From: Goekera deserti
GTDB taxonomy: Bacteria; Actinomycetota; Actinomycetes; Mycobacteriales; Geodermatophilaceae
Direction of reading: 5' to 3'
Assembly: GCF_010685995.1 (NCBI RefSeq)
Contig: NZ_JAAGWK010000008.1
Coordinates: 1-64,000, forward strand
Length of the DNA stretch: 64,000 nucleotides
Positions 2,686 to 26,634 of the stretch are shown here, piece after piece. Within the stretch, counting starts at the first letter, position 1; every line of letters begins with the position of its first letter. The notes below the pieces were generated by a model. It saw only the letters and a program-made list of their open reading frames with translations, was not told the origin of the DNA and did no database searches. The position numbers and the translations under genes are program-made.

Positions 2686-2688
2686 CCC

Positions 2689-3550: not shown

Positions 3551-3607
3551 TCGTGGGAGCGCACCAGATCGCCTGGTCGTCGACCGGCGAGCACACGAGG
3601 GAGAACG

Positions 3608-5209: not shown

Positions 5210-5219
5210 CGTACCCCGC

Positions 5220-5249: not shown

Positions 5250-5292
5250 ACGGGCGCACACCCAGCAGGTCCGGCAGCGAAGGCGGAACCTC

Positions 5293-10777: not shown

Positions 10778-11982
10778 GACCGGGTCCCTGCGACGACCGC
10801 TGCGGTGACCTCCGGCCGGGGGTCGTCGACGAGCTCGGCGGCGAGCGCCTCGACCGCCGCGCGGGCCGCGGGGCTCAACCGGGAGGGCACGGCGACCTCG
10901 ACGGTCACCAGCAGGTCACCGGCGTGCGACTTCGCCTGGACGCCGCGCCCGCGCACCCGGAAGGTGCGCCCGCTGGCCGTCCCGGCCGGGACCTTGAGCG
11001 ACACGACGCCGTCCAGGGTGGGCACCGTGAGGGTGGTGCCGAGCACCGCCTCCGGGTACGTCACCGGGACCGTGAGCAGCAGGTCGTCGCCCTTGCGCTC
11101 GAACAGGTCGTGGCCGGAGACGTGCACGACCACGAACAGGTCGCCCGCCGGGCCACCGCGACGGCCGGGCGCGCCCTTGCCGCCCAGCCGGATCCGCTGC
11201 CCGTCCTTCACCCCGGCCGGGATGCGCACCGTGATGGTGCGGGTCTGCGTGGTCACGCCGCTGCCCTTGCAGTCGCGGCACGGGTCGTCGACCACCGACC
11301 CGCTGCCGCGGCACTCGCGGCACGGCTCGGAGAAGGCGAACGCGCCCTGGCTGCGGCTGGTCACGCCGGCGCCCTGGCACACCGGGCAGGTGCGCGGGGA
11401 GGTGCCGGGGCGGGCGCCGTTGCCGTGGCAGGTCGGGCAGGTGCCGGGGCTCTCCATCCGCAGCGGGACGGTCACCCCGAGCGCGGCCTCGTCGAAGGAG
11501 AGCGTCGCCTCGGTCTCGACGTCCTGGCCGCGGGCCGGGCCGGACGCCGCCTGGCTCCGGCCGCGCGGGCCGCCCGCGGCACCGCCGCCGAACAGCCCGC
11601 CGAAGATGTCACCGATGCCGCCGGCGCCACCCGCCCGGCCGCCGGCACCGGCCTGGGTGAACAGGTCGCCGAGGTCGAAGGGCTGGCCGCCACCTGCCGC
11701 ACCGCCGGGGAAGCCGCCGGCGCCGCCCGGGCGGAAGCCGCCGGAGCCGAACAGCCGGCGCGCCTCGTCGTACTCGGCGCGCCGCTTGGCGTCGGACAGG
11801 ACGTCGTAGGCCTCCGACACGTCCTTGAAGCGCGCCTCGGCGGCCGCGTTGTCCGGGTTCTTGTCCGGGTGCAGGTCACGGGCGAGCGCGCGGTAGGCCT
11901 TCTTGATGGTCGCCGCGTCGGCGTCCTTGGCGACGCCCAACGCGGCGTAGTAGTCCTTCTCGATGAAGTCCCGGGTGCTCAT
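10774..11982 (-). CDS. dnaJ: Chaperone protein DnaJ (DnaJ1 type)
   Basis: This 402-residue co-chaperone stimulates the DnaK ATPase and delivers unfolded clients. The J-domain comes first ([20 protein letters not shown], with the invariant HPD at about residue 38). A Gly/Phe/Ala-rich linker follows, then the four zinc-binding repeats ([32 protein letters not shown]), then the C-terminal substrate-binding domain. It overlaps hspR by 4 nt and follows grpE, the standard actinobacterial order. Confidence 0.97.
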
Positions 11983-12064
11983 CGGGCGCCCCCTCTCGTG
12001 GTCGTGGGATGACGGTGGCCGGCCCGGGGGCCGGCCACCGGCCTGTCCGGTGCGGCGGAGCTGC

Positions 12065-12646
12065 TCAGCTCGTGCCGGCCGGGCCGGCGTCCGCCGGCTC
12101 GTCCGTCGCCGCGGCCACGGGGGGCTGGCCGTCGACCGACGGGGCCGGCTCCGCCGCCGCCGCCGGGGACTCCGGGTCGCTCACGCCGACCATCGCCGGG
12201 CGCAGCACCCGGTCCCCGCGCCGGAACCCCTGCCGGAGCACCGTCGTCGCGGTCGGGACCTGGACGTCGGGCGAGGTGCCGTGCATGACGGCCTCGTGGA
12301 ACGCCGGGTCGAACGGGTCGCCGGGGGCGCCGAAGCCCTCCACGCCCAGCCCGTCCAGCAGGCCCAGCACGCGGTCGGCGACGACCTTGAACGCACCGGT
12401 GAGGTCACCGTGCTCCCGGGCCCGCTCGATGTCGTCGACGACCGGGATCAGCTGGGCGGCGAACCGCTCGGCGGCCTGGTCGAGCACCAGCACGCGGTCG
12501 CGCTCGACGCGCCGCCGGTAGTTGGCGTACTCGGCCGACACCCGCTGCAGGTCCTCCGTGCGCTCGGCCAGCTGGCGGGCGCCGTCGTCCTCGGTCCCGG
12601 CGGTGGGGAGCTCGTCGCCCTCGGCCGGGATGTCCTGCTCGCTCAT
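12065..12646 (-). CDS. grpE: Nucleotide exchange factor GrpE
   Basis: The 193-residue protein has an acidic, low-complexity N-terminus, a long coiled coil ([19 protein letters not shown]), and a C-terminal beta domain with the GrpE signature region [16 protein letters not shown] followed by [20 protein letters not shown]. It releases ADP from DnaK. The last 30 residues (Ala/Pro/Glu-rich) are an unstructured tail. It is located between dnaK and dnaJ on the same strand with short gaps. Confidence 0.95.
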
Positions 12647-12734
12647 CTGCTCTCCTGTCAGGTGCTCAGCGAGGGAGTGCCGTGGCCGGCCCGGCCCGTC
12701 CCCTCACGGGGTGCGGGCCGGGCCGGCCGGGCGG

Positions 12735-14600
<1,866 letters not shown>

Positions 14601-15078: not shown

Positions 15079-17379
15079 GTGGGTCCCCTGCAGATCGTCC
15101 TGGGCACGTTGTGCGTGCTGCTGCTCGTCGTCGCGACCGCCATGGCCACCCTGGCGGTGCGCAAGATGCTGGCCGTCATCAAGACCGGCCAACCCGACAG
15201 CAGCCGCTCCGGCCCGGTCGGCACCCGGCTGAAGACCCTCGCGGTCGAGTCGCTCGGGCACACCCGGATGCTCAAGTGGTCGGCCATCGGTGCGGCGCAC
15301 TGGTTCGTGATGGTCGGCTTCTACGGGCTGTTCCTCACCCTGGTCGAGGCGTTCGGCGAGGTCTTCCACCCCGAGTTCCACCTGCCGCTGATCGGCAACT
15401 GGGGCGTCTGGAACCTGTTCGTCGACCTCATCGGCCTGGGCACGGTGCTCGGGATCGTCTACCTGATCATCCGGCGCCAGCAGGACCACCCGCGCCGCAC
15501 CGGGCGCAACGGGCGGTTCACCGGCTCCAACCAGGGTCGCGGCTACTTCGTCGAGGCCGTCGTCCTGGTGATCGGGCTCTGCATCCTGTCGATCCGCGCG
15601 GCCAAGATCGCCAGCGGCATCGACGACGCGCCGAGCTGGTCGCACCCGGTGTCCACGGCCCTGTCGAACCTGTTCCCGGACAACGCCGACCTGGTCAGCG
15701 TCATCGCCTTCGTCAAGATCGTGGTCAGCCTGGCCTGGCTGATCGTCATCTCGCGCACGCTCACCATGGGCGTGGCCTGGCACCGGTTCAGCGCCTTCTT
15801 CAACATCTACTTCAAGCGCGAGGCCGCCGGCGCCCCGGCGCTCGGCCCGCTGCAGCCGATGACCTCCGGTGGCAAGCCGATCGACTTCGAGGACCCCGAC
15901 GAGGACGCCGTCTTCGGCCGCGGCAAGATCGAGGACTTCACCTGGAAGGGCATGCTCGACTTCACGACCTGCACGGAGTGCGGTCGGTGCCAGAGCCAGT
16001 GCCCGGCGTGGAACACCGGCAAGCCGCTGTCGCCCAAGATGGTCGTGATGGACCTGCGGGACCACCTCTACGCCAAGGCCCCGTACCTGGTCGGCGCCCG
16101 CACCGTGGGCGACGGCAAGGGCGAGGACGCCGGCGGTGAGTCCACGATGCAGCCGGAGCAGCCGTCGGCCGAGCAGACCTGGTACTCCGGGTTCTCCCGC
16201 ATCCAGGGCACCAACGACGCGCAGGCCGAGCGGCCGCTGGTCGGCACGCTGGAGGAGGGCGGGGTCATCGACCCCGACGTGCTGTGGAGCTGCACCAGCT
16301 GCGGCGCCTGCGTCGAGCAGTGCCCGGTGGACATCGAGCACGTCGACCACATCATGGACATGCGCCGCTTCCAGGTGCTGATCGAGTCCAACTTCCCCTC
16401 TGAGGCCGGCGTGATGCTGCGCAACCTGGAGAACCGGGGCAACCCGTGGGGTGTGGGCGGCAGCGCCCGCGAGGACTGGATGAAGGACCTGGACTTCCCC
16501 GTCCGCAAGGTCGAGGGCGAGATCGACGACGACGTCGAGTACCTGTTCTGGGTCGGCTGCGCCGGCGCCATCGACGACCGCGCCAAGAAGGTCACCAAGG
16601 CCGTCGCCGAGCTGCTGCACATGGCCGGCGTCGAGTTCGCCGTCCTCGGCTCGGGCGAGACCTGCTCGGGCGACCCGGCCCGCCGGATGGGCAACGAGTT
16701 CGTGTTCCAGCAGCTCGCCATGGAGAACGTCGAGACGCTGAACACCGTCTTCGAGGGCCGCGAGCCCGGCCGCCGCAAGATCGTGGCCACCTGCCCGCAC
16801 TGCTTCAACTCGCTCAACCGCGAGTACCCGCAGGTCGGCGGCGACTACGACGTCGTGCACCACACGCAGCTGCTGGGTCAGCTGATCGAGGAGGGCCGGC
16901 TCACCCCGGTCACCCCGATCGACCGCAAGGTGACCTACCACGACCCCTGCTTCCTGGGCCGGCACAACAAGGTCTACACGCCCCCGCGGGAGATCCTGGA
17001 CTCCGTCAAGGGCCTGCGCACGCAGGAGATGCACCGCTGCAAGGACCGCGGTTTCTGCTGCGGCGCCGGCGGTGCCCGGATGTGGATGGAGGAGAAGATC
17101 GGGTCGCGGATCAACGTGAACCGCACCGAGGAGGCCCTCGAGCTGAACCCGGACGTCATCTCCACCGCCTGCCCGTTCTGCATCACGATGCTCAGCGACG
17201 CGGTGACCAGCAAGCAGCAGAAGGGCGAGGCCAGCGAGCACGTCGAGGTCCTGGACGTCAGCCAGATCCTGCTGCGCTCCATGGCAGGAGTCGGCACGCC
17301 CGGGACCGGGTCCGGCCCCGGCGTCGGCACCGAGCCCGACGACCCGGCCGGTGCCGGCTCCCCGCTCACCGAGCACTGA
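15079..17379 (+). CDS. etfD: EtfD-like membrane Fe-S reductase (ETF dehydrogenase)
   Basis: This 766-residue protein combines a membrane domain and a redox domain. Residues 1-250 hold about five hydrophobic helices in a cytochrome-b/NarI-like arrangement. Two 4Fe-4S motifs follow (CTECGRCQSQCP near 297, CTSCGACVEQCP near 405), then two CCG domains with DPCFLGRHN and CCGAGGARMW. This is the architecture of mycobacterial EtfD (Rv0338c type), which re-oxidises ETF loaded by acyl-CoA dehydrogenases and passes electrons to menaquinone. GTG 15079 was chosen because GAGAGGA precedes it. The shared operator with fadE5 supports the beta-oxidation role. The C-terminal 35 residues are Gly/Pro-rich and probably disordered. 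Confidence 0.88.
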   Translation: MGPLQIVLGTLCVLLLVVATAMATLAVRKMLAVIKTGQPDSSRSGPVGTRLKTLAVESLGHTRMLKWSAIGAAHWFVMVGFYGLFLTLVEAFGEVFHPEFHLPLIGNWGVWNLFVDLIGLGTVLGIVYLIIRRQQDHPRRTGRNGRFTGSNQGRGYFVEAVVLVIGLCILSIRAAKIASGIDDAPSWSHPVSTALSNLFPDNADLVSVIAFVKIVVSLAWLIVISRTLTMGVAWHRFSAFFNIYFKREAAGAPALGPLQPMTSGGKPIDFEDPDEDAVFGRGKIEDFTWKGMLDFTTCTECGRCQSQCPAWNTGKPLSPKMVVMDLRDHLYAKAPYLVGARTVGDGKGEDAGGESTMQPEQPSAEQTWYSGFSRIQGTNDAQAERPLVGTLEEGGVIDPDVLWSCTSCGACVEQCPVDIEHVDHIMDMRRFQVLIESNFPSEAGVMLRNLENRGNPWGVGGSAREDWMKDLDFPVRKVEGEIDDDVEYLFWVGCAGAIDDRAKKVTKAVAELLHMAGVEFAVLGSGETCSGDPARRMGNEFVFQQLAMENVETLNTVFEGREPGRRKIVATCPHCFNSLNREYPQVGGDYDVVHHTQLLGQLIEEGRLTPVTPIDRKVTYHDPCFLGRHNKVYTPPREILDSVKGLRTQEMHRCKDRGFCCGAGGARMWMEEKIGSRINVNRTEEALELNPDVISTACPFCITMLSDAVTSKQQKGEASEHVEVLDVSQILLRSMAGVGTPGTGSGPGVGTEPDDPAGAGSPLTEH

Positions 17380-17392
17380 GGGGTCGGGGCCC

Positions 17393-18235
17393 GTGTCCCC
17401 CTTCCTGCGCATCCCCCTCGGACTGGCGCTGGCGGCCGCCGGGCTCCTGGTCGCCGTGCTGGTCGACGACGACGCGGGGTGGGAGCTGGCCGTGGTGGCG
17501 GCGCTGCTCGTCCCCGGCGTCTACCTGCTGGTCTCGCCGTCGATCCCGCTGCTGCAGCGCCCGCCGGCGGCGGACCGGCAGCGGCCGCCGCTGGTCATCG
17601 GCCCCGTGGTGCGCGGGCGCTGGGAGGCGCTGAACAGCCCCACCAGCAAGGTGCCCAGCCACGGCACGCACGCCTTCGCCCAGACCTACGCCGTGGACCT
17701 GCTCGCCGAGGGTGACCTCCGGCGCCCGGGCCCGGCCCTGAGCCGGCCCGAGGACTTCGGCTCGTTCGGGACGCCGGTCTGCAGCCCGGTCGCCGGCACC
17801 GTCGTGCGCGCCCGCGACGGCCGGCGCGACCACCGCAACCGCCGCGGGCTGCTCGGCTTCGCCCTCTTCTTGCCGGAGTCGATGCTGCGCTCGGTCGCAG
17901 GGATGGACCGGGTCCTCGGCAACCACGTCATCGTCCGCGCGACCGACGAGGAGACGGGGGCACTGCCCGCCTGGGGGCGCCGCGGAGCCGGGTCACCGCA
18001 CGTGCTGGTGGCCCACCTGCAGCGCGGCAGCGTCACCGTCCGACCGGGCGACCAGGTCGGCCTCGGCGACCCGCTGGGCCGCTGCGGCAACTCTGGCAAC
18101 ACCACCCAGCCGCACGTGCACGTCCAGGCGATGGACGGCCCGGACCCGCGGCGGGCGACCGGCGTGGCCTTCCACGTCGACGGCGCCTCGGGCGTGGCCG
18201 AGCTGCCGGCCAACGGGGTCACCGGCGACTTCTGA
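17393..18235 (+). CDS. Membrane-anchored M23 family peptidase (copy 1)
   Basis: The 280-residue protein has two N-terminal hydrophobic helices (about 7-24 and 31-48) and then a LytM/M23 fold. Likely zinc ligands are His90/His93 and Asp102 in SHGTHAFAQTYAVDL and the HVH near the end of CGNSGNTTQPHVHVQ. Family members cut peptidoglycan cross-bridges or peptides, and the catalytic domain should face outside. GTG 17393 is preceded by GAGGGG. It is closely similar to a second M23 gene at 24437 inside the peptide cluster (blocks ALNSPTS, AQTYAVDL, LGRCGNSGN, QAM-GPDPR). It starts 13 nt after the etfD-like gene and could be transcribed with it. Confidence 0.82.
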   Translation: MSPFLRIPLGLALAAAGLLVAVLVDDDAGWELAVVAALLVPGVYLLVSPSIPLLQRPPAADRQRPPLVIGPVVRGRWEALNSPTSKVPSHGTHAFAQTYAVDLLAEGDLRRPGPALSRPEDFGSFGTPVCSPVAGTVVRARDGRRDHRNRRGLLGFALFLPESMLRSVAGMDRVLGNHVIVRATDEETGALPAWGRRGAGSPHVLVAHLQRGSVTVRPGDQVGLGDPLGRCGNSGNTTQPHVHVQAMDGPDPRRATGVAFHVDGASGVAELPANGVTGDF

Positions 18236-18383: not shown

Positions 18384-18415
18384 TCCGTCGGTGTCCGGGA
18401 CCGGACACCGACGGA
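18384..18415. promoter_or_regulatory. Long palindrome before peptide genes (site 1)
   Basis: Two perfect 15-bp arms flank a 2-nt centre (GA). The inner part reads GGTGTCCGG-GA-CCGGACACC. The inner sequence matches the GTGTCCGG half-site of the neighbouring 18423 site and of the 26301 site, so it reads as a regulator-binding site and not just a hairpin. The adjacent LuxR-type gene is the likely source of the binding protein. Confidence 0.6.
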
Positions 18416-18420
18416 CGGCC

Positions 18421-18436
18421 GTGTCCGGATCCGGAC
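18421..18436. promoter_or_regulatory. GTGTCCGGATCCGGAC operator (site 2)
   Basis: The 16-nt sequence contains the perfect 14-bp palindrome GTCCGGATCCGGAC (18423-18436). It is repeated exactly at 26300-26315, downstream of the LuxR-type regulator gene. It lies about 100 nt before the first peptide start, on the downstream side of site 1, which suggests cooperative binding. Confidence 0.6.
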
Positions 18437-18537
18437 GTCGACCGCCGTCCGCGTTGTCCGTGGGGTGTGTCCCCGTCCACAGTCGAGGTGACCGCAACGG
18501 TCGCGACGGACCCCGACTCGGAGACGGAGAAGGACAC

Positions 18538-18747
18538 ATGTTGCTGGACAAGGTGAACGCGGAGCCGGCCCTGAGCGCCGCACTCTCCCCCGCAACGGCC
18601 ACCGGCACCCTCGTGCCGGTCATGGCCACCCCGGCGGCGTTCGCCGCCATCGGTGCCGCGGGCGCGGCGAAGGCGGCCGGTGCCGTCGTCGGCGCGGGCG
18701 CGGTGACCGGTGCGGCCTACGTCGCCTACAAGGTCGCCACCGGCTGA
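18538..18747 (+). CDS. Putative exported peptide precursor 1
   Basis: The 69-residue product starts MLLDKVNAEPALSAAL and continues with PVMATPAAFAA and a Gly/Ala-rich, hydrophobic C-terminal half with glycine-zipper spacing that ends YVAYKVATG. It has no Cys. The following gene encodes a paralogue with the same start and the same PVMATPAAFAA block. Conserved start plus a small hydrophobic core is the pattern of ribosomally made exported peptides or bacteriocins. ATG 18538 has GGAGAAGGA just upstream. I recognise no named family; the context (SdpA/SdpB-like proteins, ABC exporter, peptidase) supports a secreted peptide, and its activity is unknown. Confidence 0.75.
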   Translation: MLLDKVNAEPALSAALSPATATGTLVPVMATPAAFAAIGAAGAAKAAGAVVGAGAVTGAAYVAYKVATG

Positions 18748-18829
18748 CCCCGGTCACGCCACCGCCGGGCCGGCGACCCGCCGGGCACCGGCACCCCCCT
18801 CCCGCACGGTCAGACACAGGAGCCCACAG

Positions 18830-19024
18830 ATGTTGCTGAACAAGGTCAACGCAGAGCCGTCCCTCCGCCGGTCCCTCTCCCCCGGCATCCCGGTCCTCAC
18901 CGCCTCGCCGGTGATGGCCACGCCGGCCGCCTTCGCCGCCGGCGTCGTGGCCGGCGCCAAGGCCAGCGCCATCCTCACCGGCGCGGCCGGTGTGGGTGTG
19001 GCGGTCAAGACCGCGCAGAAGTGA
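18830..19024 (+). CDS. Putative exported peptide precursor 2
   Basis: The 64-residue paralogue of the preceding gene starts MLLNKVNAEPSLRRSLSPG, shares SPVMATPAAFAAG, and ends in a Gly/Ala/Val helix followed by AVKTAQK. The identical residues are concentrated in the first ten positions and in the PVMATPAAFAA block, and the region between varies in length and sequence. ATG 18830 follows an AGGAG at usual spacing. An 82-nt gap separates it from precursor 1, and a strong hairpin follows 5 nt after its stop. A two-peptide system or a duplicated precursor is possible. Confidence 0.75.
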   Translation: MLLNKVNAEPSLRRSLSPGIPVLTASPVMATPAAFAAGVVAGAKASAILTGAAGVGVAVKTAQK

Positions 19025-19029
19025 CCCCC

Positions 19030-19065
19030 GGTGGTGGGTCCCCGACACCACGGGGACCCACCACC
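19030..19065 (+). terminator. Attenuator-like hairpin between peptides and biosynthetic genes
   Basis: GGTGGTGGGTCCCC and GGGGACCCACCACC are perfect 14-bp arms around an 8-nt loop, directly after the second peptide stop and 67 nt before the next gene on the same strand. A leaky terminator here would make more precursor mRNA than enzyme mRNA, as is common in bacteriocin operons. It may also stabilise the 3' end of the peptide transcript. Confidence 0.65.
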
Positions 19066-19132
19066 CCCGCACCCGCAGCCCCTCCCTCGCGGCCGACGGC
19101 GGCCGCCGGCACCGAAGAGCAGGAGAGACGAC

Positions 19133-19978
19133 GTGACGACCGTGTTGCAGCCGGCCCTCACCGCTGCCCGCACCGCATTCGACCAACCCCTGAGCACCGC
19201 CGAGCGACTGTCGGCCGTGACCCACCTGCTCTCCAGCGTGGAGTACATGGTCCGCCCGGAGGACCGCCGGCCCGGTGGGCTGAACGGGTGGGAGCACACC
19301 CGAGAGCAGGTGCGGTCCAAGACCCGCCTCGGCCAGGCCGTCCGCGACCTCGTGGCGCGGGAACCGGTCACCCAGGCGCTGCACGCCTCGCGGGTCGTCG
19401 CCGCCGGGGTGCTCGTCGCGCCGCGCCGGAGCAACCGGTCCCGGCTGCTGGCCAACGCCTGGCTGGTCGGAACGCAGCTGGTGCTCTACCCGCGGCACCT
19501 GTTCGGCACCGACGGCTCGGACCAGGTCTCGTTCCTCGTGCAGTCCGCGGCCACGCTGGGCCGGGCCGGGGGCAGCGACGCGACACGCTGGGCCGCGGTG
19601 CAGTTCATCGGCGCCCAGACCGTGCTCTCCTACGGCGCGTCCGGCTGGGCCAAGCTGCCCGGTGACGCGTGGCGGTCCGGGGAGGCCCTGCGCGGCATCA
19701 TGCGTACCCAGACCTACGGCGACCGGTGGCTGTTCGAGCAGCTGGACCGGCACCCTGCCGCGGCCCGCCTGCTGTGCCACAGCGTGCTGGCGATGGAGTG
19801 CGGCTTCCCGCTGCTGCTGCTCGGGCGGGGGCGGTTCATCGAGGCCGGCCTGGCCACCATGGGCCTGTTCCACCTGGCCAACGCGCGGTTCATGGGGCTG
19901 TCCCGCTTCGCCTGGGCGTTCCTCGCCACCTACCCGGCGGCCCGGGCCCTCGCCCGGCGGACGGGGGCGTCGGCATGA
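19133..19978 (+). CDS. SdpB/HTTM-like membrane protein
   Basis: The 281-residue protein is rich in hydrophobic helices, particularly after residue 100 (VAAGVLVAPRR, WAAVQFIGAQTVLSYGASGWAKL, FPLLLLGRGRFIEAGLATMG). The GASGWAKL...W...G followed by C/G-F-P-L pattern resembles the HTTM fold of SdpB and of bacterial vitamin-K-carboxylase-like proteins, which in Bacillus matures the SDP toxin with SdpA. GTG 19133 has AGGAG upstream. Its stop overlaps the next ATG by 4 nt. Assignment rests on pattern and on the SdpA-like partner two genes downstream, so a profile search is needed to confirm it. Confidence 0.65.
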   Translation: MTTVLQPALTAARTAFDQPLSTAERLSAVTHLLSSVEYMVRPEDRRPGGLNGWEHTREQVRSKTRLGQAVRDLVAREPVTQALHASRVVAAGVLVAPRRSNRSRLLANAWLVGTQLVLYPRHLFGTDGSDQVSFLVQSAATLGRAGGSDATRWAAVQFIGAQTVLSYGASGWAKLPGDAWRSGEALRGIMRTQTYGDRWLFEQLDRHPAAARLLCHSVLAMECGFPLLLLGRGRFIEAGLATMGLFHLANARFMGLSRFAWAFLATYPAARALARRTGASA

Positions 19979-20985
19979 CCGCGGCCACGTTCCCCGCGCT
20001 CACCGCCCTGGGCCTGGCCGGCAGCCTCGGCGCCGGCCTCGTGCACCACGCCTACGCCTCGGTGCGGCACCTCGCCGACCACCCGGGGTTCGAGCGGCAC
20101 GAGCGCCGCTGCGGCAGCGGCAACCTCGTCTCCTACCACGTGCGCCGCGGCCGGCCCGGCGGCGGGACCGTGGTCTGCGAGGCCGGTCTGATGAACACCT
20201 CGTCGGCCTGGTTGCTCGTCGCCGACCACGTCGACGCCGGCACGACCGTGGTGCTGGTCGACCGCGCCGGCTACCGGCGGTCGCTGCGCCGGTGCCCCGA
20301 GCGGTACTGCTTCCAGGAGTCCGTGGGCGACCTCGCCGAGGTGGTAGCCGAGGCCTCGGACCCGGCGGGGACGACGGTCCTCGCCGGCCACTCGATGGGC
20401 GGCTACCTGGCCCACCGGACGGCGGCCGGCATGCCCGGCCGGGTGCACGGCGTCGTCCTGGTCGACCCCACGCACCCGCGCGAGCTGCACCACTCGATGG
20501 CCCAGCGCTCGGGCTCGCGCGGCATGGACCTGACCCTCCGGCTCGGCCCGGGCTCGGCGGTGCTGGGCTGCGGCCTGCTGCTGGACAAGCGCAACCTGTT
20601 CGCCTACGCCGCGGACAACCCGCACCGGCGGGCGCTGCGCCTGGAGGTGTCCGCGTCGTCGACCTGGCGCGCGGCGCGGCGGGAGTGGGCCTACGCCTAC
20701 GCGTTCATGGTCGACGGCGGGCGCGAACTCCAGCAGCTCGACGTCCCGGTGGTGGTGGCCGCCGCCGAGTCGACGCTGCAGGGCACCCCCGAGCACCGCG
20801 ACCTCTACGACGAGTACGTCGCCAGCGGCTCCGGGGGTCACGTGCGCACGGTGCCGGGCAGCGACCACCTGTCGATCCTCGGCGCGGCAGCCCCGGCCGC
20901 GGCCACCGCGGCCGAGATCACCGCCCTGCTGGACCGGGCGAGCCGTGCCCGCCGTCCCCTCACCCCCGTCGGAGGTCGATCGTGA
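19975..20985 (+). CDS. Alpha/beta hydrolase, membrane-anchored
   Basis: The 336-residue protein has a short hydrophobic N-terminus (LTALGLAGSLGAGLV) and an alpha/beta-hydrolase fold. The nucleophile elbow is GHSMGG, an acidic residue is probably in the VVVAAAES strand, and the catalytic His is in GSDHLSIL. Possible roles are hydrolysis or proteolytic trimming of the peptide product, or release of an acyl group; the substrate cannot be read from sequence. It overlaps both neighbours by 4 nt (ATGA and GTGA), so it is an integral part of the operon. Confidence 0.85.
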   Translation: MTAATFPALTALGLAGSLGAGLVHHAYASVRHLADHPGFERHERRCGSGNLVSYHVRRGRPGGGTVVCEAGLMNTSSAWLLVADHVDAGTTVVLVDRAGYRRSLRRCPERYCFQESVGDLAEVVAEASDPAGTTVLAGHSMGGYLAHRTAAGMPGRVHGVVLVDPTHPRELHHSMAQRSGSRGMDLTLRLGPGSAVLGCGLLLDKRNLFAYAADNPHRRALRLEVSASSTWRAARREWAYAYAFMVDGGRELQQLDVPVVVAAAESTLQGTPEHRDLYDEYVASGSGGHVRTVPGSDHLSILGAAAPAAATAAEITALLDRASRARRPLTPVGGRS

Positions 20986-21563
20986 CGCTCACCCGCAGCA
21001 CCGTGCTGCAGCACGCAGTGCCCGCCGTCTTCGCCGGCTGGTTCGTGGCCAGCGTGCTGGGCCAGCACCCCGACCGCAGCTACGACCGGGTCCGCCGCCT
21101 GGACCGGACGGGCACCGGCGTGCTCATCCCCAACTGGCGGTTCTTCGCGCCGAACCCGGCCGTGGAGGACCAGCACTTCCTCTACCGGCTGGCCTCGGCC
21201 GACCTCACCGAGCACACCGAGTGGCGCGAGGTCTTCACCAGCGCCCCCCGCCAGCTGACGCACGCCTTCTGGTTCCCCGGACGGCGCACGGAGAAGGCCG
21301 TCTTCGACGTCGCCGCCGCCCTGGTGAACGGCCCGGAGAAGACGGCGAAGGGCGCCACGGCCGCCGCCGCCGCCCGGGACCTGATCTGCGACTTCGTGCG
21401 GTACCGGCTCACCCCCGAGCCGGGCTACCCGCTGTTCCAGGTGCTGCTGGTCCGCTACGCCGGCTACGACCACAGCGAGGACCCCAAGTACGACATGGTC
21501 TTCGACTACCGGCCGGTCGCCGGCGACGGCGCCACCGCGGCCCGGCTGCGGGGTGCGGCATGA
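20982..21563 (+). CDS. SdpA-like peptide maturation protein
   Basis: The 193-residue protein has a single N-terminal hydrophobic segment (VPAVFAGWFVASVLG) and then the motif NWRFFAPNP around residue 44. A Trp-x-Phe-Phe-x-x-(D/N)-Pro motif right after a membrane anchor is typical of SdpA-type proteins, which work with SdpB to process SDP-type toxins in Bacillus. The rest (DQHFLYRL, FVRYRLTPEPGYPLFQVLLV) looks like a small extracytoplasmic domain. GTG 20982 with GGAGG upstream overlaps the hydrolase stop. The similarity is by recollection of the family motif, not a search. Confidence 0.6.
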   Translation: MTLTRSTVLQHAVPAVFAGWFVASVLGQHPDRSYDRVRRLDRTGTGVLIPNWRFFAPNPAVEDQHFLYRLASADLTEHTEWREVFTSAPRQLTHAFWFPGRRTEKAVFDVAAALVNGPEKTAKGATAAAAARDLICDFVRYRLTPEPGYPLFQVLLVRYAGYDHSEDPKYDMVFDYRPVAGDGATAARLRGAA

Positions 21564-22315
21564 CCGCCGACGTGCAGTACGGGCCCGAGGTGGCCTCGGT
21601 CTACGACTGGTTCATCTCCCGGAACATACCGGTCGGCCCCACCCTGGAACGGCTGCGCCCGGCCGTCACCGGTGCGCGGGTGCTGGAGCTCGGGGTCGGC
21701 ACCGGCCGGGTGGCCCTGCCGGTGGCAGCACTGGCCGAGCGCGTGGTCGGCCTGGACAACTCACCGGCCATGCTGGCCCGGCTGCGGGCCAAGGAGCTGC
21801 CCGCGAATCTGGACCTGGTGGAGGCCGACGTCCGCCACCGGCTCCCGCTCACCGGCCGCTTCCAGGCGGCGTACGCCACGCTGGGGTCACTGGCCTGCGT
21901 CCGGTCCCGCGCCGAGCTCGGCGCGGCACTGGCCCACGTCCGGCAGGTGCTCGAGCCGGGTGCGGCCTTCTGCTTCGACCTCTACTCGGTGCCGCTGTAC
22001 CGGCAGCTGGCCGACCTGGGCCCGGTCACCATCCCCACCGAGGACCCTGCGGGCACCGCCACCTGCACCGTGGACGTCGACGGCGACCGGCTCACCACCG
22101 GGACCACCGTCGACCCGCTCGACGCACCGTCCGTGCACTTCAGCGAGCAGGTCCTGCTGATCGCACCCGACGAGGTGCGTGCCCTGCTCGCCGAGGCCGG
22201 CTTCACCGACGTGCACGTCGAGCCGGCCGGCCCGCACGAGCCCTACGACTGGTACCGCTGCCGCGCCGGGAGCGGTGCTGCCCCCACCGACCGCACTGGA
22301 GGACTGCCGTGCTGA
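21560..22315 (+). CDS. Class I SAM-dependent methyltransferase
   Basis: The 251-residue protein has the Rossmann methyltransferase motifs: VLELGVGTGRVALPVA (motif I), VVGLDNSPAMLARL (motif post-I) and LVEADVRH (motif II), then a C-terminal part with HFSEQVLLIAPDEVRALLAEAGF. It overlaps the SdpA-like gene by 4 nt and the next small gene by 7 nt. It could N- or C-methylate the peptide product or modify a lipid; no substrate motif is visible. Confidence 0.85.
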   Translation: MTADVQYGPEVASVYDWFISRNIPVGPTLERLRPAVTGARVLELGVGTGRVALPVAALAERVVGLDNSPAMLARLRAKELPANLDLVEADVRHRLPLTGRFQAAYATLGSLACVRSRAELGAALAHVRQVLEPGAAFCFDLYSVPLYRQLADLGPVTIPTEDPAGTATCTVDVDGDRLTTGTTVDPLDAPSVHFSEQVLLIAPDEVRALLAEAGFTDVHVEPAGPHEPYDWYRCRAGSGAAPTDRTGGLPC

Positions 22316-22485
22316 CCCGCCGACGCTCGACCTCGTTCGTGGTCGCGTTCTTCTTCGCCCTGCCCGTGCTGGCCGTCGTCCTCCGGGACGAGTCCAGCGG
22401 TGCCGTGCCGGTGACGGCCGTGCTGGGTGCGCTCGGCGTCGCCGTGGTGCTCGCCGCGGGGCTGGGCGGACAGGAGCGGTCATGA
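22309..22485 (+). CDS. Small two-helix membrane protein
   Basis: The 58-residue product starts MLTRRRSTSF and has two hydrophobic helices (VVAFFFALPVLAVVL and VTAVLGALGVAVVLAAG) joined by a short polar loop with a short charged tail. GTG 22309 has GGAGG upstream. It overlaps the methyltransferase and the ABC transporter genes. Small double-helix proteins next to bacteriocin exporters are often immunity factors or transporter accessories, so that is the best guess here. Confidence 0.7.
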   Translation: MLTRRRSTSFVVAFFFALPVLAVVLRDESSGAVPVTAVLGALGVAVVLAAGLGGQERS

Positions 22486-24206
22486 GGATCCGGGCCGTCG
22501 CCGCCCGGCAGAAGGGCCTGCTCGCCGCCGGGGTGCTGGTCGGCCTGGCCGGGACGGCGGCGATGCTGCTGCAGCCGGTGCTGCTCGGCCGGCTCATCGC
22601 GAACGTGAGCGCCGGGGAGTCAGCGACCGGCCCGGTGGTCGGCATCGCCCTGCTGTTCGTGGCCGACGCCGTGCTGGCCACCCTGAACGTGTACCTGATC
22701 GGCCTGGCCGGCGAGAACATGGTGCTGGACATGCGCACCACGCTGACCGGCCGGTTGCTGCGCTCCCGGCTGGAGGCGTTCCGGCGCCTGGAGCACGGCG
22801 ACGTGATGAACAGGACCCTGGCCGACACCTCGCTGGCCCGCCTCGCGCTGTCCTCGTCGGTGGCCCAGATGGTCACCTCCGCGTTCACCGTGGTCGGCTG
22901 CGTGGTGGCCATGGCCTGGATCGACTGGCGGCTGCTGCTGGCGGCGCTGGCTTGCCTGGGCCTCGCGGCCGGGGCCGGGCTGCTGCTGGCCGGGGCGGTG
23001 CGCCGGGCCGCCACCTGCAACCGCGAGGACACCAGCGCCTACGGGTCCGGCCTGCTGCGGGTGCTCGGGGCGCTCACCACCGTGAAGGCCTCGCGCGCCG
23101 AGGACCGGGAGGGCGAGCACCTCGCTGAGCTGGCCGGCAACGCCCGGCGCAGCGGCATCCGGGTGACCCGGCTGTCGGCGATGTTCCTGCCGGCGATCAA
23201 CGTCGGCACCCAGCTGTCCCTCGCCGTGGTCATCACCTGGGGCATCGCCCGGACGGCGACCGGCACGCTGCAGCTGGCCGACCTCACCGCGTTCGTGATG
23301 TACCTGTTCTACCTGGTGTCCCCGCTGGTGCTCTTCTTCATGGGGCTGGGCGAGGTGCAGCAGGGCCGGGCGGCCATCGCGCGGGTGGTCGAGCTCGCCG
23401 ACCTCGAGCAGGAGGAGGACGACGGCCGTACCGCGATCGCCGGCCACCCCCGGGCCGGCGCGCCGGCCGTCGAGTTCCGCGACGTCGGGTTCCGGTACGA
23501 GGGCGCCGCGACCCCGGCCGTCGACGGGGTGTCCTTCACCCTGCCGGCCACCGGGGTGACCGCCGTCGTCGGGCCCTCCGGGGCGGGCAAGTCCACGGTG
23601 TTCCAGCTGGTCGAGCGGTTCATGGCCCCCGACCAGGGCAGCGTCCGGCTGCTCGGCCAGGACGCCGGGGACGTGTCGCTCGCGCAGTGGCGGTCGCGGA
23701 TCGCCCTCGTCGAGCAGGACTGCCCGCTGATGCGCGGCACGCTCCGGGAGAACCTGGTCTACGCCTGCCCGGACGCCGACGACGAGCAGGTCCGGGACGC
23801 CGTCCGCGCCGCCCACCTGGAGGACGTCGTCGCGGCGCTGCCCGACGGGCTGGACACCCGCCTCGGCGAGGCCGGCGTCGGCCTGTCCGGTGGCCAGCGG
23901 CAGCGGCTGGCCGTGGCCCGTGCGCTGCTGACCCGGCCCAGCGTGCTGCTGCTGGACGAAGCCACCTCCCAGCTGGACTCCGACAGCGAACGGGCGCTGC
24001 GGGAGACCGTCACGTCACTCGGCGACCGCTGCCAGGTGATCACCGTCGCGCACCGCATGTCCACCGCCATGAGCGCCGACCACATCCTGGTCATGGAGGG
24101 CGGCCGGCTGCGGGCACAGGGCCCGCACGCCCGGCTGATGGACGACGACGAACTGTACCGGCGGCTGGCCGACCAGCAGCTGAGCCCGGTCGCACTCGCC
24201 GGCTGA
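22482..24206 (+). CDS. ABC exporter (fused permease-ATPase)
   Basis: The 574-residue half-transporter has six predicted membrane helices in residues 1-310 and a nucleotide-binding domain with Walker A GPSGAGKST (about 365), signature LSGGQRQRL, Walker B VLLLDEAT and the switch His in TVAHRMS. It lacks the N-terminal C39 peptidase found in many bacteriocin exporters, so any leader removal must be done by another protein. It presumably forms a homodimer that exports the mature peptides. ATG 22482 overlaps the previous stop by 4 nt. Confidence 0.92.
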   Translation: MRIRAVAARQKGLLAAGVLVGLAGTAAMLLQPVLLGRLIANVSAGESATGPVVGIALLFVADAVLATLNVYLIGLAGENMVLDMRTTLTGRLLRSRLEAFRRLEHGDVMNRTLADTSLARLALSSSVAQMVTSAFTVVGCVVAMAWIDWRLLLAALACLGLAAGAGLLLAGAVRRAATCNREDTSAYGSGLLRVLGALTTVKASRAEDREGEHLAELAGNARRSGIRVTRLSAMFLPAINVGTQLSLAVVITWGIARTATGTLQLADLTAFVMYLFYLVSPLVLFFMGLGEVQQGRAAIARVVELADLEQEEDDGRTAIAGHPRAGAPAVEFRDVGFRYEGAATPAVDGVSFTLPATGVTAVVGPSGAGKSTVFQLVERFMAPDQGSVRLLGQDAGDVSLAQWRSRIALVEQDCPLMRGTLRENLVYACPDADDEQVRDAVRAAHLEDVVAALPDGLDTRLGEAGVGLSGGQRQRLAVARALLTRPSVLLLDEATSQLDSDSERALRETVTSLGDRCQVITVAHRMSTAMSADHILVMEGGRLRAQGPHARLMDDDELYRRLADQQLSPVALAG

Positions 24207-24287
24207 CCAGCCCACCGACCGGCCCGCTCCACCGATCCGGCCGCTCCGTCGAGCGGCGACCGCAGGACACCACCGAGGAGGAAGCAC

Positions 24288-24440
24288 GTGCCCACCATCG
24301 ACACCGCCGACCTGGACGACGCCATCAGCAGCGCCTTCCAGGAGCTGCGCACGGCCATGCGCTCGTTCAACCGGGACAGCATCCAGCTCTACAGCGCGGC
24401 CCTGGAGGCACTGGTCAAGCTGCGTCAGGTCACCCCGTGA
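24288..24440 (+). CDS. Small helical protein of the peptide cluster
   Basis: The 50-residue product starts MPTIDTADLDDAISSAFQEL and is predicted to be one long amphipathic helix without Cys or a membrane segment. GTG 24288 is preceded by GAGGAGG. Its TGA overlaps the GTG of the M23 peptidase gene (GTGA), so it is translationally coupled to it. It could be an adaptor, an antitoxin/immunity-type protein or another structural peptide. I recognise no family. Confidence 0.7.
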   Translation: MPTIDTADLDDAISSAFQELRTAMRSFNRDSIQLYSAALEALVKLRQVTP

Positions 24441-25294
24441 CCACGGCGCGGGACCAGATGACGACGCCCGCGGTGGACGTCCCGGTGCCCAGCGCGGGCA
24501 CCGGGCCCGGCCGGCCGGCCGTCGGGGCGCTGCTGCTCGTGGCCGCGGTGGTGGCGGCCCTGCTGCTGCCCGACGCCGCCTGGCGGACGGCCGCGGTCCT
24601 GGCGCTGGGCGCCCCGGGGTCGTACCTGCTGGGTGCCGGGCTGACCGACAGGCTGTCCGGACGCCGGCCGCCCGCCGCGGGCCTGACCTCCACCGGCCTG
24701 GCCCCGGTCGCGGCCGGCCGGTGGACCGCGCTGAACAGCCCGACCAGCGCGGTGCCCAGCCACGGACTGCACACCTACGCGCAGACCTACGCCGTGGACC
24801 TCGCCCGCAGCGAGGACCTCGACCACCCCGGGGGCGGGCCGTTCGCCCGGCCCGAGCGCTTCGTCACCTTCGGCGCACCGCTGCTGAGCCCGGTGGACGG
24901 CGAGGTGGTCACAGTGGTCGACGGGATGCGCGACCACCGGGCCCGCTGCGGGCTGACCGGGGCGGCGTACCTGCTGGTGGAGGCGGCCCTGCGCAGCCTC
25001 GGCGGGATCCGCCGCGTGGTCGGCAACCACGTGGTGGTGCGCGGTGCGGACGGGGTGCACGTCCTGCTGGCCCACGTGCAGCGAGGGTCGGCCACCGTCG
25101 CACCCGGGCAGCGCGTACCGGCCGGTGCCGTGCTCGGCCGGTGCGGGAACTCCGGCAACTCCAGCCAGCCGCACCTGCACCTGCAGGCCATGTCCGGGCC
25201 CGACCCGCGATCCGCCCACGGCCTGCCGTTCCACTTTCTGCTCGACGGCCGCGCCGTCCCGCTGCCCCCGGACCGGGCCGAGCTGGACTTCTAG
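24437..25294 (+). CDS. Membrane-anchored M23 family peptidase (copy 2)
   Basis: This 285-residue paralogue of the 17393 gene has two N-terminal hydrophobic helices and a LytM/M23 domain. Probable zinc ligands are the His residues of SHGLHTYAQTYAVDL with its Asp, and HLH in CGNSGNSSQPHLHLQ. The core blocks are nearly identical to copy 1, while the membrane part has diverged. It may process the exported peptide at the outer face of the membrane or remodel the wall for export or self-protection. It overlaps the 50-residue gene by 4 nt and is the last gene of the operon before the regulator. Confidence 0.83.
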   Translation: MTTARDQMTTPAVDVPVPSAGTGPGRPAVGALLLVAAVVAALLLPDAAWRTAAVLALGAPGSYLLGAGLTDRLSGRRPPAAGLTSTGLAPVAAGRWTALNSPTSAVPSHGLHTYAQTYAVDLARSEDLDHPGGGPFARPERFVTFGAPLLSPVDGEVVTVVDGMRDHRARCGLTGAAYLLVEAALRSLGGIRRVVGNHVVVRGADGVHVLLAHVQRGSATVAPGQRVPAGAVLGRCGNSGNSSQPHLHLQAMSGPDPRSAHGLPFHFLLDGRAVPLPPDRAELDF

Positions 25295-25321
25295 TCCACC
25301 GGGCGGTGCACACTGGCCCGC

Positions 25322-26290
25322 GTGGCCGCCCTGCACGAGCTGACGCCCTCGACGGTCCAGCTGTTCGAACGGCTGCTCAGCGCCGGGGAGCTCGAGGCCG
25401 GGGCGCTGCAGCGCTCGCTGGCCACCGCGCCCGGGGGCCCGGCGGCGCTCACCTCGCTGGTGCAGCTCGGGCTGGCCCGGCTCACCACCGGCCCGGACGG
25501 TGCGGCACTCGTCGGGCTGGGCAGCACCGCGACGCTGCGCCGGCTGGCCGAGGCACCCGGCACGGCCGCGGCGCAGCGGCTGCTGCGTGCCCGGCTGGCG
25601 CTCTCCGGCAGCCTGGAGCAGCAGCGCGGGCCGTCCGGGACGTCGGTGACCGTCGCCGACCGGGCGGAGCTGACCGAGCGGCTGCAGCGGCTGGGCCGCG
25701 AGGTCGGCGAGGAACTGGTCTCACTGCACGCCGGGGCCGTCCCCGAGGGGCCGGCGCTGGACGCGCACCTGGCCTCGGACCTGGAGCTGGTGGCCCGCGG
25801 CGTCCGGGTGCGCGTCGTGTACTCCGCCGAGGCCGCGTCCAGTCCGCAGCTGCGCACCTACGCCGCCGCGCTGGCCGCGGTGGGCGCGGAGATCCGCGTC
25901 GCCGGCGGGGTCCCGCACCGCCTGGTGGTCGCCGACGCCCGGGAGGCGGTGGTGCCGGTGGACAACGCCTCCCTCGCGGCGGGGGCCGTGTTCACCACCG
26001 ACCCCACGCTGGTGCGCCGCCTGCACCGGCTGGCGGACACCCTGTTCGACAACGCCAGCCCGCTGGACGAGGCTCCGTCGGCGGCGGTGCCCGGGGTGCG
26101 ACCGCCGACGCCGCTGGAACGCCGGGTGCTGCACCTGATGAGCTCCGGGGTCACCGACGAGGTCGCGGCCAGCAGGCTGGGCGTCACCGACCGCACGTTC
26201 CGGCGCTACGTGTCCTCGATCCTGAAGCACCTGGGCGCCACCAGCCGTTTCCAGGCCGGCCTGCGCGCCATCGAGCACGGCTGGCTCTGA
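25322..26290 (+). CDS. LuxR-type HTH regulator with TrmB-like sensor part
   Basis: The 322-residue protein ends in a LuxR/GerE helix-turn-helix (PLERRVLHLMSSGVTDEVAA, then VTDRTFRRYVSSILKHLG, about 255-320). There is no response-regulator receiver. The N-terminal 80 residues look like a degenerate winged helix, and residues 150-250 (RVRVVYSAEAAS, AVGAEIRVAGGVPHRLVVAD, VFTTDPTLVRRLHRLADTLF) resemble a TrmB/PLD-like sensor fold. Such regulators often sit beside peptide natural-product clusters in actinobacteria. It follows the M23 gene by 27 nt. It is the best candidate to bind the GTGTCCGG palindromes at both ends of the cluster. Confidence 0.83.
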   Translation: MAALHELTPSTVQLFERLLSAGELEAGALQRSLATAPGGPAALTSLVQLGLARLTTGPDGAALVGLGSTATLRRLAEAPGTAAAQRLLRARLALSGSLEQQRGPSGTSVTVADRAELTERLQRLGREVGEELVSLHAGAVPEGPALDAHLASDLELVARGVRVRVVYSAEAASSPQLRTYAAALAAVGAEIRVAGGVPHRLVVADAREAVVPVDNASLAAGAVFTTDPTLVRRLHRLADTLFDNASPLDEAPSAAVPGVRPPTPLERRVLHLMSSGVTDEVAASRLGVTDRTFRRYVSSILKHLGATSRFQAGLRAIEHGWL

Positions 26291-26299
26291 GCACGGGGC

Positions 26300-26316
26300 G
26301 TGTCCGGATCCGGACA
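26300..26316. promoter_or_regulatory. GTGTCCGGATCCGGAC operator (site 3)
   Basis: TGTCCGGATCCGGACA (26301-26316) is a perfect 16-bp palindrome, and with the preceding G it repeats exactly the 16-nt sequence at 18421-18436. It sits 10 nt after the LuxR-type gene stop and about 118 nt before the next small gene, similar to the distance of site 2 from the first peptide gene. Confidence 0.6.
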
Positions 26317-26433
26317 TCCCAGGTCCTCCCGCTGGCAGCACCCGGCAGCCCCACTGAGACTGGGGCCGTCGGGAGCTCCACCTGGGGCGAGGGGCCCGGC
26401 CGGCGGCCGGGACGGACGAGGAGGACGGGTTCG

Positions 26434-26634
26434 ATGAGCAGGACGGCGATGCTGCTGGTGAGCGGGCTGGGCGCCGGGGTGCTGGGCCTGACCGGGGAGC
26501 TGCGCCCGGAGACCGCGCAGCACTCCTCCAGCGCGGCGGTGGTCACCAGCGCGGCCCCGGCCGCGCCGGGTGTGCCGCCCGCCGCGCCGCGTCTCGCGCC
26601 GGCCAGGCAGCTGTGCCTGGTGTGCTGGCTCTGA
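26434..26634 (+). CDS. Small membrane peptide with C-terminal CxxC
   Basis: The 66-residue product has a hydrophobic N-terminal helix (AMLLVSGLGAGVLGLTG), a Ser/Ala/Pro-rich linker and a C-terminus reading ARQLCLVCWL, so two Cys separated by two residues lie at the extreme end. ATG 26434 is preceded by GAGGAGG. It has its own copy of the cluster operator upstream, which places it in the same regulon. It may be another exported peptide or an accessory. I know no family with this tail. Confidence 0.6.
   Translation: MSRTAMLLVSGLGAGVLGLTGELRPETAQHSSSAAVVTSAAPAAPGVPPAAPRLAPARQLCLVCWL

What the first reader, a model, noticed from the sequence alone, without database searches (positions are those of the whole stretch)
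18384..26634. SDP-like exported peptide cluster with two paralogous precursors
Two small genes with a common MLL(D/N)KVNAEP start and Gly/Ala-rich hydrophobic ends precede a coupled operon. The operon encodes an SdpB/HTTM-like membrane protein, an alpha/beta hydrolase, an SdpA-like protein with WRFFAPNP, a methyltransferase, a two-helix membrane peptide, an ABC exporter without a peptidase domain, a 50-residue protein and an M23 peptidase. A LuxR-type regulator follows. The pairing of SdpA and SdpB with small precursors is known for the Bacillus SDP toxin; adding methyltransferase, hydrolase and M23 peptidase to 64-69-residue Cys-free peptides is not a described class to my knowledge. A bacteriocin or signalling peptide system is the inference.
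Basis: partly seen in the sequence, partly recalled or inferred. Interest (0 to 1): 0.88.

Follow-up and report, generated by a model that had tools for sequence, protein, structure and literature searches.

The report
Threonine-poor two-peptide linaridin gene cluster
This is a gene cluster that most likely makes a pair of modified small peptides of the known linaridin family, but with unusually little threonine, and one of its enzymes looks like the vitamin K enzyme of blood clotting, which suggests how such peptides may be altered.

Summary
The genes are real and in the order described, but the best name is a linaridin-type RiPP cluster, not an SDP cluster. Both precursors carry the linaridin leader/core boundary PxxxTP (PVMATP). 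The "SdpB" is LinG (HTTM), the hydrolase LinE, the "SdpA" LinL, the methyltransferase LinM (PDB relatives include the cypemycin N-methyltransferase), the exporter LinT. The same LinL search reached Streptomyces griseus with a cypemycin/grisemycin-type precursor beside it. Seven further actinobacterial clusters, plus one on a Streptomyces globosus plasmid, share gene order and two paralogous precursors; cores are under purifying selection and more conserved than leaders. Unusual: cores hold only 0-1 Ser and 0-5 Thr, although dehydrated Thr is the linaridin hallmark, and two or three precursors recur. LinG's predicted structure matches human vitamin K gamma-carboxylase (Z 15.3, 231 residues), with an invariant Lys near the position of catalytic Lys218. 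I infer that LinG/LinL/LinE deprotonate C-alpha, mainly epimerising Ala/Val-rich cores, that LinM methylates the new N-terminus, and that LinT exports a membrane-active pair. No product data exist. New variant of a known kind.

The parts
18538..18747 (+). LinA1 precursor, 69 aa; leader MLLDKVNAEP...VPVMATP, core AAFAAIGAAGAAKAAGAVVGAGAVTGAAYVAYKVATG
   Evidence: PxxxTP motif, homologue in 7 of 7 syntenic relatives, core dN/dS 0.21
18830..19024 (+). LinA2 precursor, 64 aa; core AAFAAGVVAGAKASAILTGAAGVGVAVKTAQK
   Evidence: PxxxTP motif, homologue in 7 of 7 syntenic relatives, core dN/dS 0.39
19133..19978 (+). LinG, HTTM membrane protein (the 'SdpB-like' protein)
   Evidence: HTTM E 0.0025, below the curated score; AF2 pLDDT 93; PDB match vitamin K gamma-carboxylase Z 15.3 over 231 residues; K174 invariant in 37 of 37
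19975..20985 (+). LinE, alpha/beta hydrolase; candidate leader peptidase or partner of LinG (fused to it in other linaridin clusters)
   Evidence: Abhydrolase_6 4.7e-15; S140, D164, E237, H298 invariant in 42 of 42; fused HTTM-hydrolase e.g. in L074
20982..21563 (+). LinL (the 'SdpA-like' protein), one N-terminal hydrophobic segment
   Evidence: 68-74% identical in L028-L034, related to the LinL beside the S. griseus CLVC precursor; DUF5819 E 1.7e-4, under the curated cut-off
21560..22315 (+). LinM, SAM-dependent alpha-N-methyltransferase (predicted)
   Evidence: PDB matches led by YunM 7wzf E 1.2e-13, cypemycin N-terminal methyltransferase 7wzg E 3.3e-9 fifth of 15; daptide MTase model 4.5e-17, below its cut-off
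22309..22485 (+). 58-aa two-helix membrane peptide, possibly immunity
   Evidence: two hydrophobic segments; 36% match in L031 only, 1 of 80; a similar small ORF in L033
22482..24206 (+). LinT, ABC exporter (MsbA type, no peptidase domain)
   Evidence: ABC_membrane + ABC_tran; 65-70% identical in 7 of 7 syntenic relatives
24288..24440 (+). 50-aa conserved protein of this linaridin subgroup
   Evidence: homologue in 7 of 80 loci, the same seven that carry the two precursors; similar ORF on the S. globosus plasmid
24437..25294 (+). membrane-anchored M23-family protein, overlapping the end of the 50-aa gene
   Evidence: Peptidase_M23 1.2e-12; homologue after the exporter in Mycetocola L035 only, 1 of 80 loci
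25322..26290 (+). LuxR-type (GerE) regulator, possible cluster regulator
   Evidence: GerE 1.5e-5
17351..18235 (+). second M23 paralogue upstream of the precursors, possible cluster member
   Evidence: 54% identical to the other over 238 aa; these are the only two in the genome at E<=1e-10

Best explanation
A linaridin-type RiPP cluster with separate LinG and LinE (type-B-like), making two Thr-poor, Ala/Gly/Val-rich, cationic peptides. Shown by sequence: precursors with the PxxxTP boundary; LinG, LinE, LinL, LinM and LinT; conserved synteny and purifying selection. Inferred: the KVN-type leader is bound by a membrane complex LinG-LinL-LinE. LinG, built like the quinone-binding half of vitamin K gamma-carboxylase, removes C-alpha protons of core residues, so that Ala/Val residues are epimerised and any accessible Thr/Ser may lose water. 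LinE (intact Ser/His hydrolase) or the complex cuts after TP. LinM dimethylates the freed N-terminal Ala. LinT exports the pair, which acts together on membranes of related bacteria or serves as a signal. Each inferred step is unproven here; I hold the class assignment at about 0.9 or more and the full chain of steps far lower.
For: PVMATP in both precursors and in all 14 A and B precursors of the seven relatives. The LinL-based scan (80 loci) reached cypemycin/grisemycin-type precursors ending STICL[VI]C in 11 of the 52 loci scanned for them, including S. griseus L074. A second sample drawn with LinG: PxxxTP precursors in 8 of 12 stretches with a LinE match and 0 of 8 without; leaving out five repeats of earlier genomes, 6 of 7 and 0 of 8. 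LinM's PDB relatives include the cypemycin methyltransferase. Corynaridin cluster of the same gene kinds (PMC9927463). LinG fold match to GGCX, Z 15.3 against 9.2 for the best unrelated row. LinE catalytic residues invariant in 42 of 42. All eight A and all eight B cores start with Ala.
Against: Cores hold only 0-1 Ser and 0-5 Thr, so the dehydrated Thr that marks known linaridins may be absent. Cores more conserved than leaders are unlike a fast-evolving antibiotic. An FAD oxidoreductase gene of several relatives is missing from the window cluster. Window LinG and LinL hit HTTM and DUF5819 only below curated cut-offs. 16 of the 41 loci with a LinE match gave no PxxxTP precursor (grouping), one of them (L035) having a contig that starts at LinG. 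Foldseek alone gives GGCX no E below 0.001. LinM's second-best PDB match, CcbJ, is not named as a linaridin enzyme. No product data exist; epimerisation rests on literature about grisemycin (PMC10373908, passage seen).
Confidence: 0.85

Rival explanations
1. An SDP-like toxin system: SdpA/SdpB homologues process a precursor into an unmodified, proteolytically matured membrane toxin.
For: 20 of 37 LinG relatives match the SdpB model TIGR04033; pairs of HTTM and LinL-like genes without a hydrolase match exist in Bacteroidota and Nitrosomonadaceae, with the small gene first, an order I recall for sdpA-sdpB.
Against: Window LinG does not hit TIGR04033; 0 of 58 LinL relatives hit Pfam's SdpA; the precursors have a PxxxTP leader; 26 of 28 rows labelled pair without hydrolase fall together in the LinL tree, away from the window (not rooted), and 8 of 8 stretches without a LinE match had no PxxxTP precursor.
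Confidence: 0.06
2. A two-peptide signalling (pheromone) linaridin: the conserved cores are sensed, with LuxR or a two-component system as receiver, and are not antimicrobial.
For: Cores are more conserved than leaders (A core dN/dS 0.21, leader 0.49; B 0.39 and 0.50); regulators flank clusters: a sigma factor on the S. globosus plasmid (annotated) and what reads as a histidine kinase and response regulator upstream in L031 and L034 (sequence reading only).
Against: The flanking regulators differ between loci; ABC ATPase/permease genes of the kind often used for self-immunity flank the S. globosus cluster (annotated) and, by sequence reading, an ABC ATPase gene flanks L028, L031, L033 and L034.
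Confidence: 0.2
3. A daptide-like or other N-methylated helical RiPP in which LinM is the only modifying enzyme and LinG/L/E serve cleavage and export.
For: LinM matches the daptide methyltransferase model (E 4.5e-17, below cut-off); hydrophobic cationic cores.
Against: None of the ten scanned cluster proteins is an aminotransferase or alcohol dehydrogenase or RRE-peptidase, which mark daptides (PMC10036551, passages seen); neither core ends in Thr.
Confidence: 0.12

Closest known systems
Type-B linaridins (corynaridin, legonaridin)
   Same: LinA with PxxxTP, HTTM LinG, a/b hydrolase LinE, LinL, ABC LinT; methylation in legonaridin; no decarboxylase, no C-terminal Cys
   Different: corynaridin precursor has seven Thr in its C-terminal part (PMC9927463, section 5) where these cores have 0-5; two precursors here; no SDR gene here; M23 and 50-aa genes extra
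Type-A linaridins (cypemycin, grisemycin)
   Same: PxxxTP boundary (PAMATP in L074), LinL, HTTM and hydrolase (fused as one 585-aa protein in L074), a related N-terminal methyltransferase (cypemycin)
   Different: type A ends in CLVC and forms AviCys (PMC10373908 passage, for cypemycin); window cores are Cys-free, and HTTM and hydrolase are separate
Thr-poor PxxxTP clusters found here (e.g. L043, L046, L051, L117, L120, L121)
   Same: same enzymes, two or three precursors, Ala/Gly/Val-rich cores with few Ser/Thr
   Different: LinG and LinE fused in L043, L046, L051, LinL only 36-40% identical, no match to the 50-aa gene
Bacillus SDP (SdpABC)
   Same: HTTM superfamily membrane protein next to a small partner protein and a peptide gene
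   Different: no SdpA profile match, has PxxxTP leader, methyltransferase and own exporter
Vitamin K gamma-glutamyl carboxylase (GGCX)
   Same: predicted fold of LinG residues 17-273 matches GGCX 61-313
   Different: LinG is 281 aa and lacks the rest of the GGCX chains (up to 698 residues); no counterpart of H160 was identified; carboxylation not implied

Membership tests
linaridin | LinL homologue (typically used to identify linaridin clusters, PMC9927463) | tested here: met
   the LinL scan links the window to S. griseus L074 with a CLVC precursor (39% over residues 21-114, E 2e-14); same side of an unrooted quick tree as type A, fork support 94, long branches warned of
linaridin | PxxxTP leader/core boundary | tested here: met
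   PVMATP in both window precursors and in 14 of 14 A and B precursors of 7 relatives
linaridin | HTTM protein and a/b hydrolase in the cluster | tested here: met
   HTTM below the curated score for the window protein, but the fold match is strong
linaridin | Thr-rich core with dehydrated Thr (dehydrobutyrine) | tested here: inconclusive
   core is Thr-poor: 2 Thr in each window core; whether they are dehydrated needs mass spectrometry
linaridin | alpha-N-methyltransferase (most but not all members) | tested here: met
   cypemycin N-terminal methyltransferase and YunM among PDB matches; activity not tested
SDP (SdpABC) | SdpA (PF17418) | tested here: not met
   0 of 58 relatives match at E<=0.01; best match in the genome E 0.43, elsewhere, below cut-off
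SDP (SdpABC) | SdpB (TIGR04033) | tested here: inconclusive
   window protein does not match, 20 of 37 relatives do
SDP (SdpABC) | SdpC-like precursor | tested here: inconclusive
   precursors of 64-69 aa pass no Pfam or NCBIfam cut-off and carry PxxxTP leaders; not compared with SdpC directly
daptide | aminotransferase, alcohol dehydrogenase, RRE-peptidase, C-terminal Thr | tested here: not met
   none among the ten cluster proteins scanned; cores end in G and K
HTTM/vitamin K-type enzyme (works like) | catalytic Lys218 and quinone pocket residues of GGCX | tested here: inconclusive
   invariant K174, W180, F246, M254, F259 (37 of 37) fall within about 3 positions of GGCX K218, W223, F286, F294, F299 by the end-point offsets; V210 would fall at Ser166; no counterpart of H160 seen; the tool shows no residue pairs

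The most novel reading that the evidence does not exclude
LinG/SdpB-type HTTM proteins are menaquinol-dependent peptide deprotonases: like GGCX, the conserved Lys activates a reduced quinone whose oxygenated base pulls the C-alpha proton from core residues held by LinL and LinE. One chemistry would then explain both hallmark linaridin changes, dehydration of Thr (C-alpha deprotonation, loss of water) and D-residues (reprotonation), and the Thr-poor two-peptide subgroup would be its nearly pure epimerisation branch, giving D-residue-rich pairs.
Probability: 0.25. Interest if true: 0.85.

Novelty: new variant of a known kind. Interest (0 to 1): 0.52.

Why it matters
How linaridins are dehydrated and epimerised is open: the corynaridin paper calls the mechanism of the HTTM protein and hydrolase unclear (PMC9927463). 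A conserved, Ser/Thr-poor pair made with the full LinG/LinE/LinL set largely separates the two activities and gives a clean substrate to test whether epimerisation is the core function. The predicted structural tie of LinG to the vitamin K carboxylase offers named residues and a cofactor to test. If right, it would also bear on SdpB and other HTTM proteins.

Tried and rejected
SDP membership: rejected as above. Daptide: considered because LinM hits the daptide methyltransferase model; rejected because the other daptide genes are absent. Family-wide search with the 69-aa precursor: 43 of 108 genomes gave matches at E<=0.1, but apart from the window's own two precursors the best is 9e-4, and I judge them low-complexity Ala/Gly hits; not used. 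PDB sequence searches with the LinG profile and two single relatives gave no hit, so the GGCX tie rests on predicted fold only. The LinL model (pLDDT 87) has no usable PDB match (best E 0.26). The L006/L067 Modestobacter cluster has LinH- and LinL-like genes, but I found no credible PxxxTP precursor there and its small Cys-containing peptide lacks the motif; not counted as the same kind. The relatives' FAD oxidoreductase has a 49% homologue in the window's genome on another contig, C15; none of the 12 query proteins matches C15:1-12000 at E<=1e-3; left open.

Rows dropped or not seen. One search scanned 52 of the 73 loci other than L028-L034; I set aside nine rows as spurious (two in L043, two in L044, one in L087, two in L096, one in L097, one in L104) and did not class one ORF in L045, which may be real. 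In one search three rows were set aside (L116 9245, L119 16174, L120 16569). Five of its 20 stretches repeat genomes (contig lengths equal to L031, L036, L037, L041, L057). 'No LinE match' is a tblastn result: type-A loci with a fused protein of about 490-594 aa also often lack one, and L132, counted among the 8 without, comes from a 604-aa open frame, so it may hold an unseen fused hydrolase. One search scored at most 6 candidates per genome. The scan left pepA out because of its length filter. One search covered 4 of the 7 relatives. The dN/dS values are pooled Nei-Gojobori pairs on short GC-rich genes and are rough. The tree is a quick one with long branches. Literature: Georgiou 2020 is not held; Xiao 2022 and Ma and Zhang 2020 I know only as references or by recall; whether they describe this subgroup was not tested.
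Full report
What is there. The window holds, all on the + strand, two paralogous precursor genes (18538-18747, 18830-19024), then a tightly packed operon 19133-25294 and a LuxR-type gene. Six of seven junctions overlap by 4-7 bases; the gap before the 50-aa gene is 81 bases. The window's genome is 4.84 Mb; of 112 genomes of its family 4, its own included, have a LinL homologue at E<=1e-6.

What it is. The two precursors share PVMATPAAFAA. PxxxTP is the conserved hexapeptide cleavage motif of linaridins (PMC9927463, section 5). The same section lists for corynaridin an HTTM protein, an alpha/beta hydrolase, LinL, an SDR and an ABC transporter; methylation is known for legonaridin. The window has all of these kinds but the SDR, in one operon. 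That the 'SdpA-like' protein is LinL was tested by scanning genome contigs (84,980 species genomes) with a four-sequence alignment: 98 relatives, 80 kept. Among 52 of these loci scanned for PxxxTP ORFs, 11 carry precursors that end STICL[VI]C, cypemycin/grisemycin style, including Streptomyces griseus L074, where LinL follows the fused HTTM-hydrolase gene beside the precursor. That this is the grisemycin cluster itself is recalled from the organism and sequence. The methyltransferase's PDB matches are led by YunM (which I recall as a type-B linaridin methyltransferase) and include 'Cypemycin N-terminal methyltransferase', fifth of 15.

Relatives. Seven loci (L028-L034: five Streptomyces, a Micromonospora, Paractinoplanes bogorensis) have LinG 71-75%, LinL 68-74%, LinT 65-70% identical, in the same order, plus a homologue of the 50-aa gene, found in these 7 of 80 loci only. 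All seven hold an A precursor (66 aa) and a B precursor (59 aa); three also hold a third kind. The Streptomyces globosus plasmid NZ_CP030864 has the same cluster with three precursors, all annotated as hypothetical. Mycetocola reblochoni L035 joins this clade (support 99, quick SH-aLRT tree) and is the one other locus of 80 with the M23 gene. Differences: L031, L033, L034 and the plasmid have a further gene after the exporter that is annotated on the plasmid as an FAD-dependent oxidoreductase; the window has none there, and has M23 instead.

Selection. Over 28 pairs of eight sequences, dN/dS is 0.34 (A) and 0.44 (B); the cores (0.21, 0.39) are more constrained than the leaders (0.49, 0.50). 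That suits a pair whose two members must fit each other or a receptor better than a fast-changing antibiotic. The A core has 2 Thr in the window and in L034 and 3-5 in the other six; B cores have 0-2 Thr and 0-1 Ser; three of eight B cores have one Cys, the window's none; every A and B core starts with Ala. One B position is Ser or Thr in 8 of 8, and two A positions are Thr in 7 of 8, so limited dehydration remains possible.

Second co-occurrence test. A LinG search of 397 genomes of the order found 21 with matches (26 places). In 20 stretches covering the 23 places not already seen in the family, a LinL match lay in the same stretch in 20 of 20 (up to about 9 kb away), a LinE match in 12. PxxxTP precursors were found in 8 of those 12 and in 0 of the other 8. 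Five of the 20 repeat genomes of the first scan; without them it is 6 of 7 and 0 of 8. One of the 8 (L132) may hide a fused hydrolase. Many of these precursors are also Thr-poor and come in pairs, several with a leader start like M..L..[KR][VI]N, so the window belongs to a broader Thr-poor branch. Against a perfect link: of 41 loci of the first scan with a LinE match, 16 gave no precursor (grouping).

Mechanism. LinG: AlphaFold model with pLDDT 93. Foldseek's six best PDB chains are all vitamin K gamma-carboxylase (GGCX), probability 1.00, but with E 3e-3 to 8e-3, none under 0.001. VIA-align gives Z 15.3 over 231 residues at 3.7 A, model 17-273 on GGCX 61-313, with the best unrelated row at 9.2; the tool warns that helical models can reach chance Z near 13-14. 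LinG K174 is invariant in 37 of 37 relatives, as are W180, F246, M254 and F259. With end-point offsets of 44 and 40 these lie at or within about 3 positions of GGCX K218 (the base that deprotonates vitamin K hydroquinone) and the quinone-pocket residues W223, F286, F294, F299 named in PMC12589487 (passages seen). Two further pocket residues do not fit so well: V210 would fall at Ser166, and I saw no counterpart of H160. The tool does not print residue pairs and sequence searches gave nothing, so this stays an inference. LinE keeps S140, D164, E237 and H298 in 42 of 42, so it looks like a working serine hydrolase; apart from the M23 proteins the window cluster shows no other protease family over its cut-off, and the corynaridin paper notes that its cluster, like other linaridin clusters, has no leader protease gene. 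grmL of grisemycin is reported as indispensable and a possible epimerase (PMC10373908, passage). Putting this together, the complex most likely acts on C-alpha protons, and with so little Ser/Thr the main outcome would be D-residues. LinM would methylate the N-terminal Ala after cleavage, LinT export.

SDP question. LinG and SdpB share the HTTM superfamily (20 of 37 relatives match TIGR04033, the window protein not), and pairs of HTTM with a LinL-like partner and no hydrolase match occur in Bacteroidota, Nitrosomonadaceae and others. So 'SDP-like' describes a distant kinship of one protein, not the system. If LinG's chemistry is solved, it may inform SdpB too.

Known or not. Ten paper searches listed no title or abstract start on a two-peptide or Thr-poor linaridin, nor one tying LinG to vitamin K chemistry. 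I saw listings only (40 listed of 132 papers with the word linaridin) and passages or one section of four papers, and the library lacks main linaridin surveys, which may have listed such clusters. I therefore call it a new variant of a known kind, with its interest in the open chemistry and not in the existence of the cluster.

Noticed in passing
window 26434-26634 +: A 66-aa ORF with a likely ribosome site, a hydrophobic start and the end QLCLVCWL, reminiscent of the CLVC end of type-A linaridins but not terminal and without PxxxTP; probably coincidence.
   Followed up: partly
window 17351-18235 and 24437-25294 +: Two M23-family paralogues (54% identical, the only two in the genome at E<=1e-10) bracket the cluster; both keep HxH and share SHGxHxxAQTYAVD where a plain HxxxD motif would be expected.
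   Followed up: partly
L006 / L067 (Modestobacter), L006 7942-15786: A cluster with fused HTTM-hydrolase, LinL-like protein, ABC genes, what reads as an LLM-type oxidoreductase and a small acidic peptide ending SIDNTFDHWC without PxxxTP; may be another RiPP kind.
   Followed up: partly
L110 (Streptomyces californicus plasmid) 63-7564: Two linaridin-like gene sets back to back on opposite strands, one with a long and one with a separate hydrolase gene, near type I-E CRISPR genes; one small ORF has PIMATF in place of PxxxTP.
   Followed up: no
L058, L061, L064, L085, L093, L105 and others: HTTM + LinL-like pairs without a hydrolase match in Bacteroidota, Nitrosomonadaceae, Chloroflexota and Acidobacteriota; their substrates are unknown.
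   Followed up: no
L048, L050, L125, L128: Loci (Amycolatopsis, Prauserella and the like) with two kinds of PxxxTP precursor with long cores of about 50-54 aa, kilobases apart in one locus.
   Followed up: no
window 10774-14600 -: DnaJ and DnaK (HSP70) genes lie upstream on the other strand, so the cluster sits near a housekeeping heat-shock locus.
   Followed up: no
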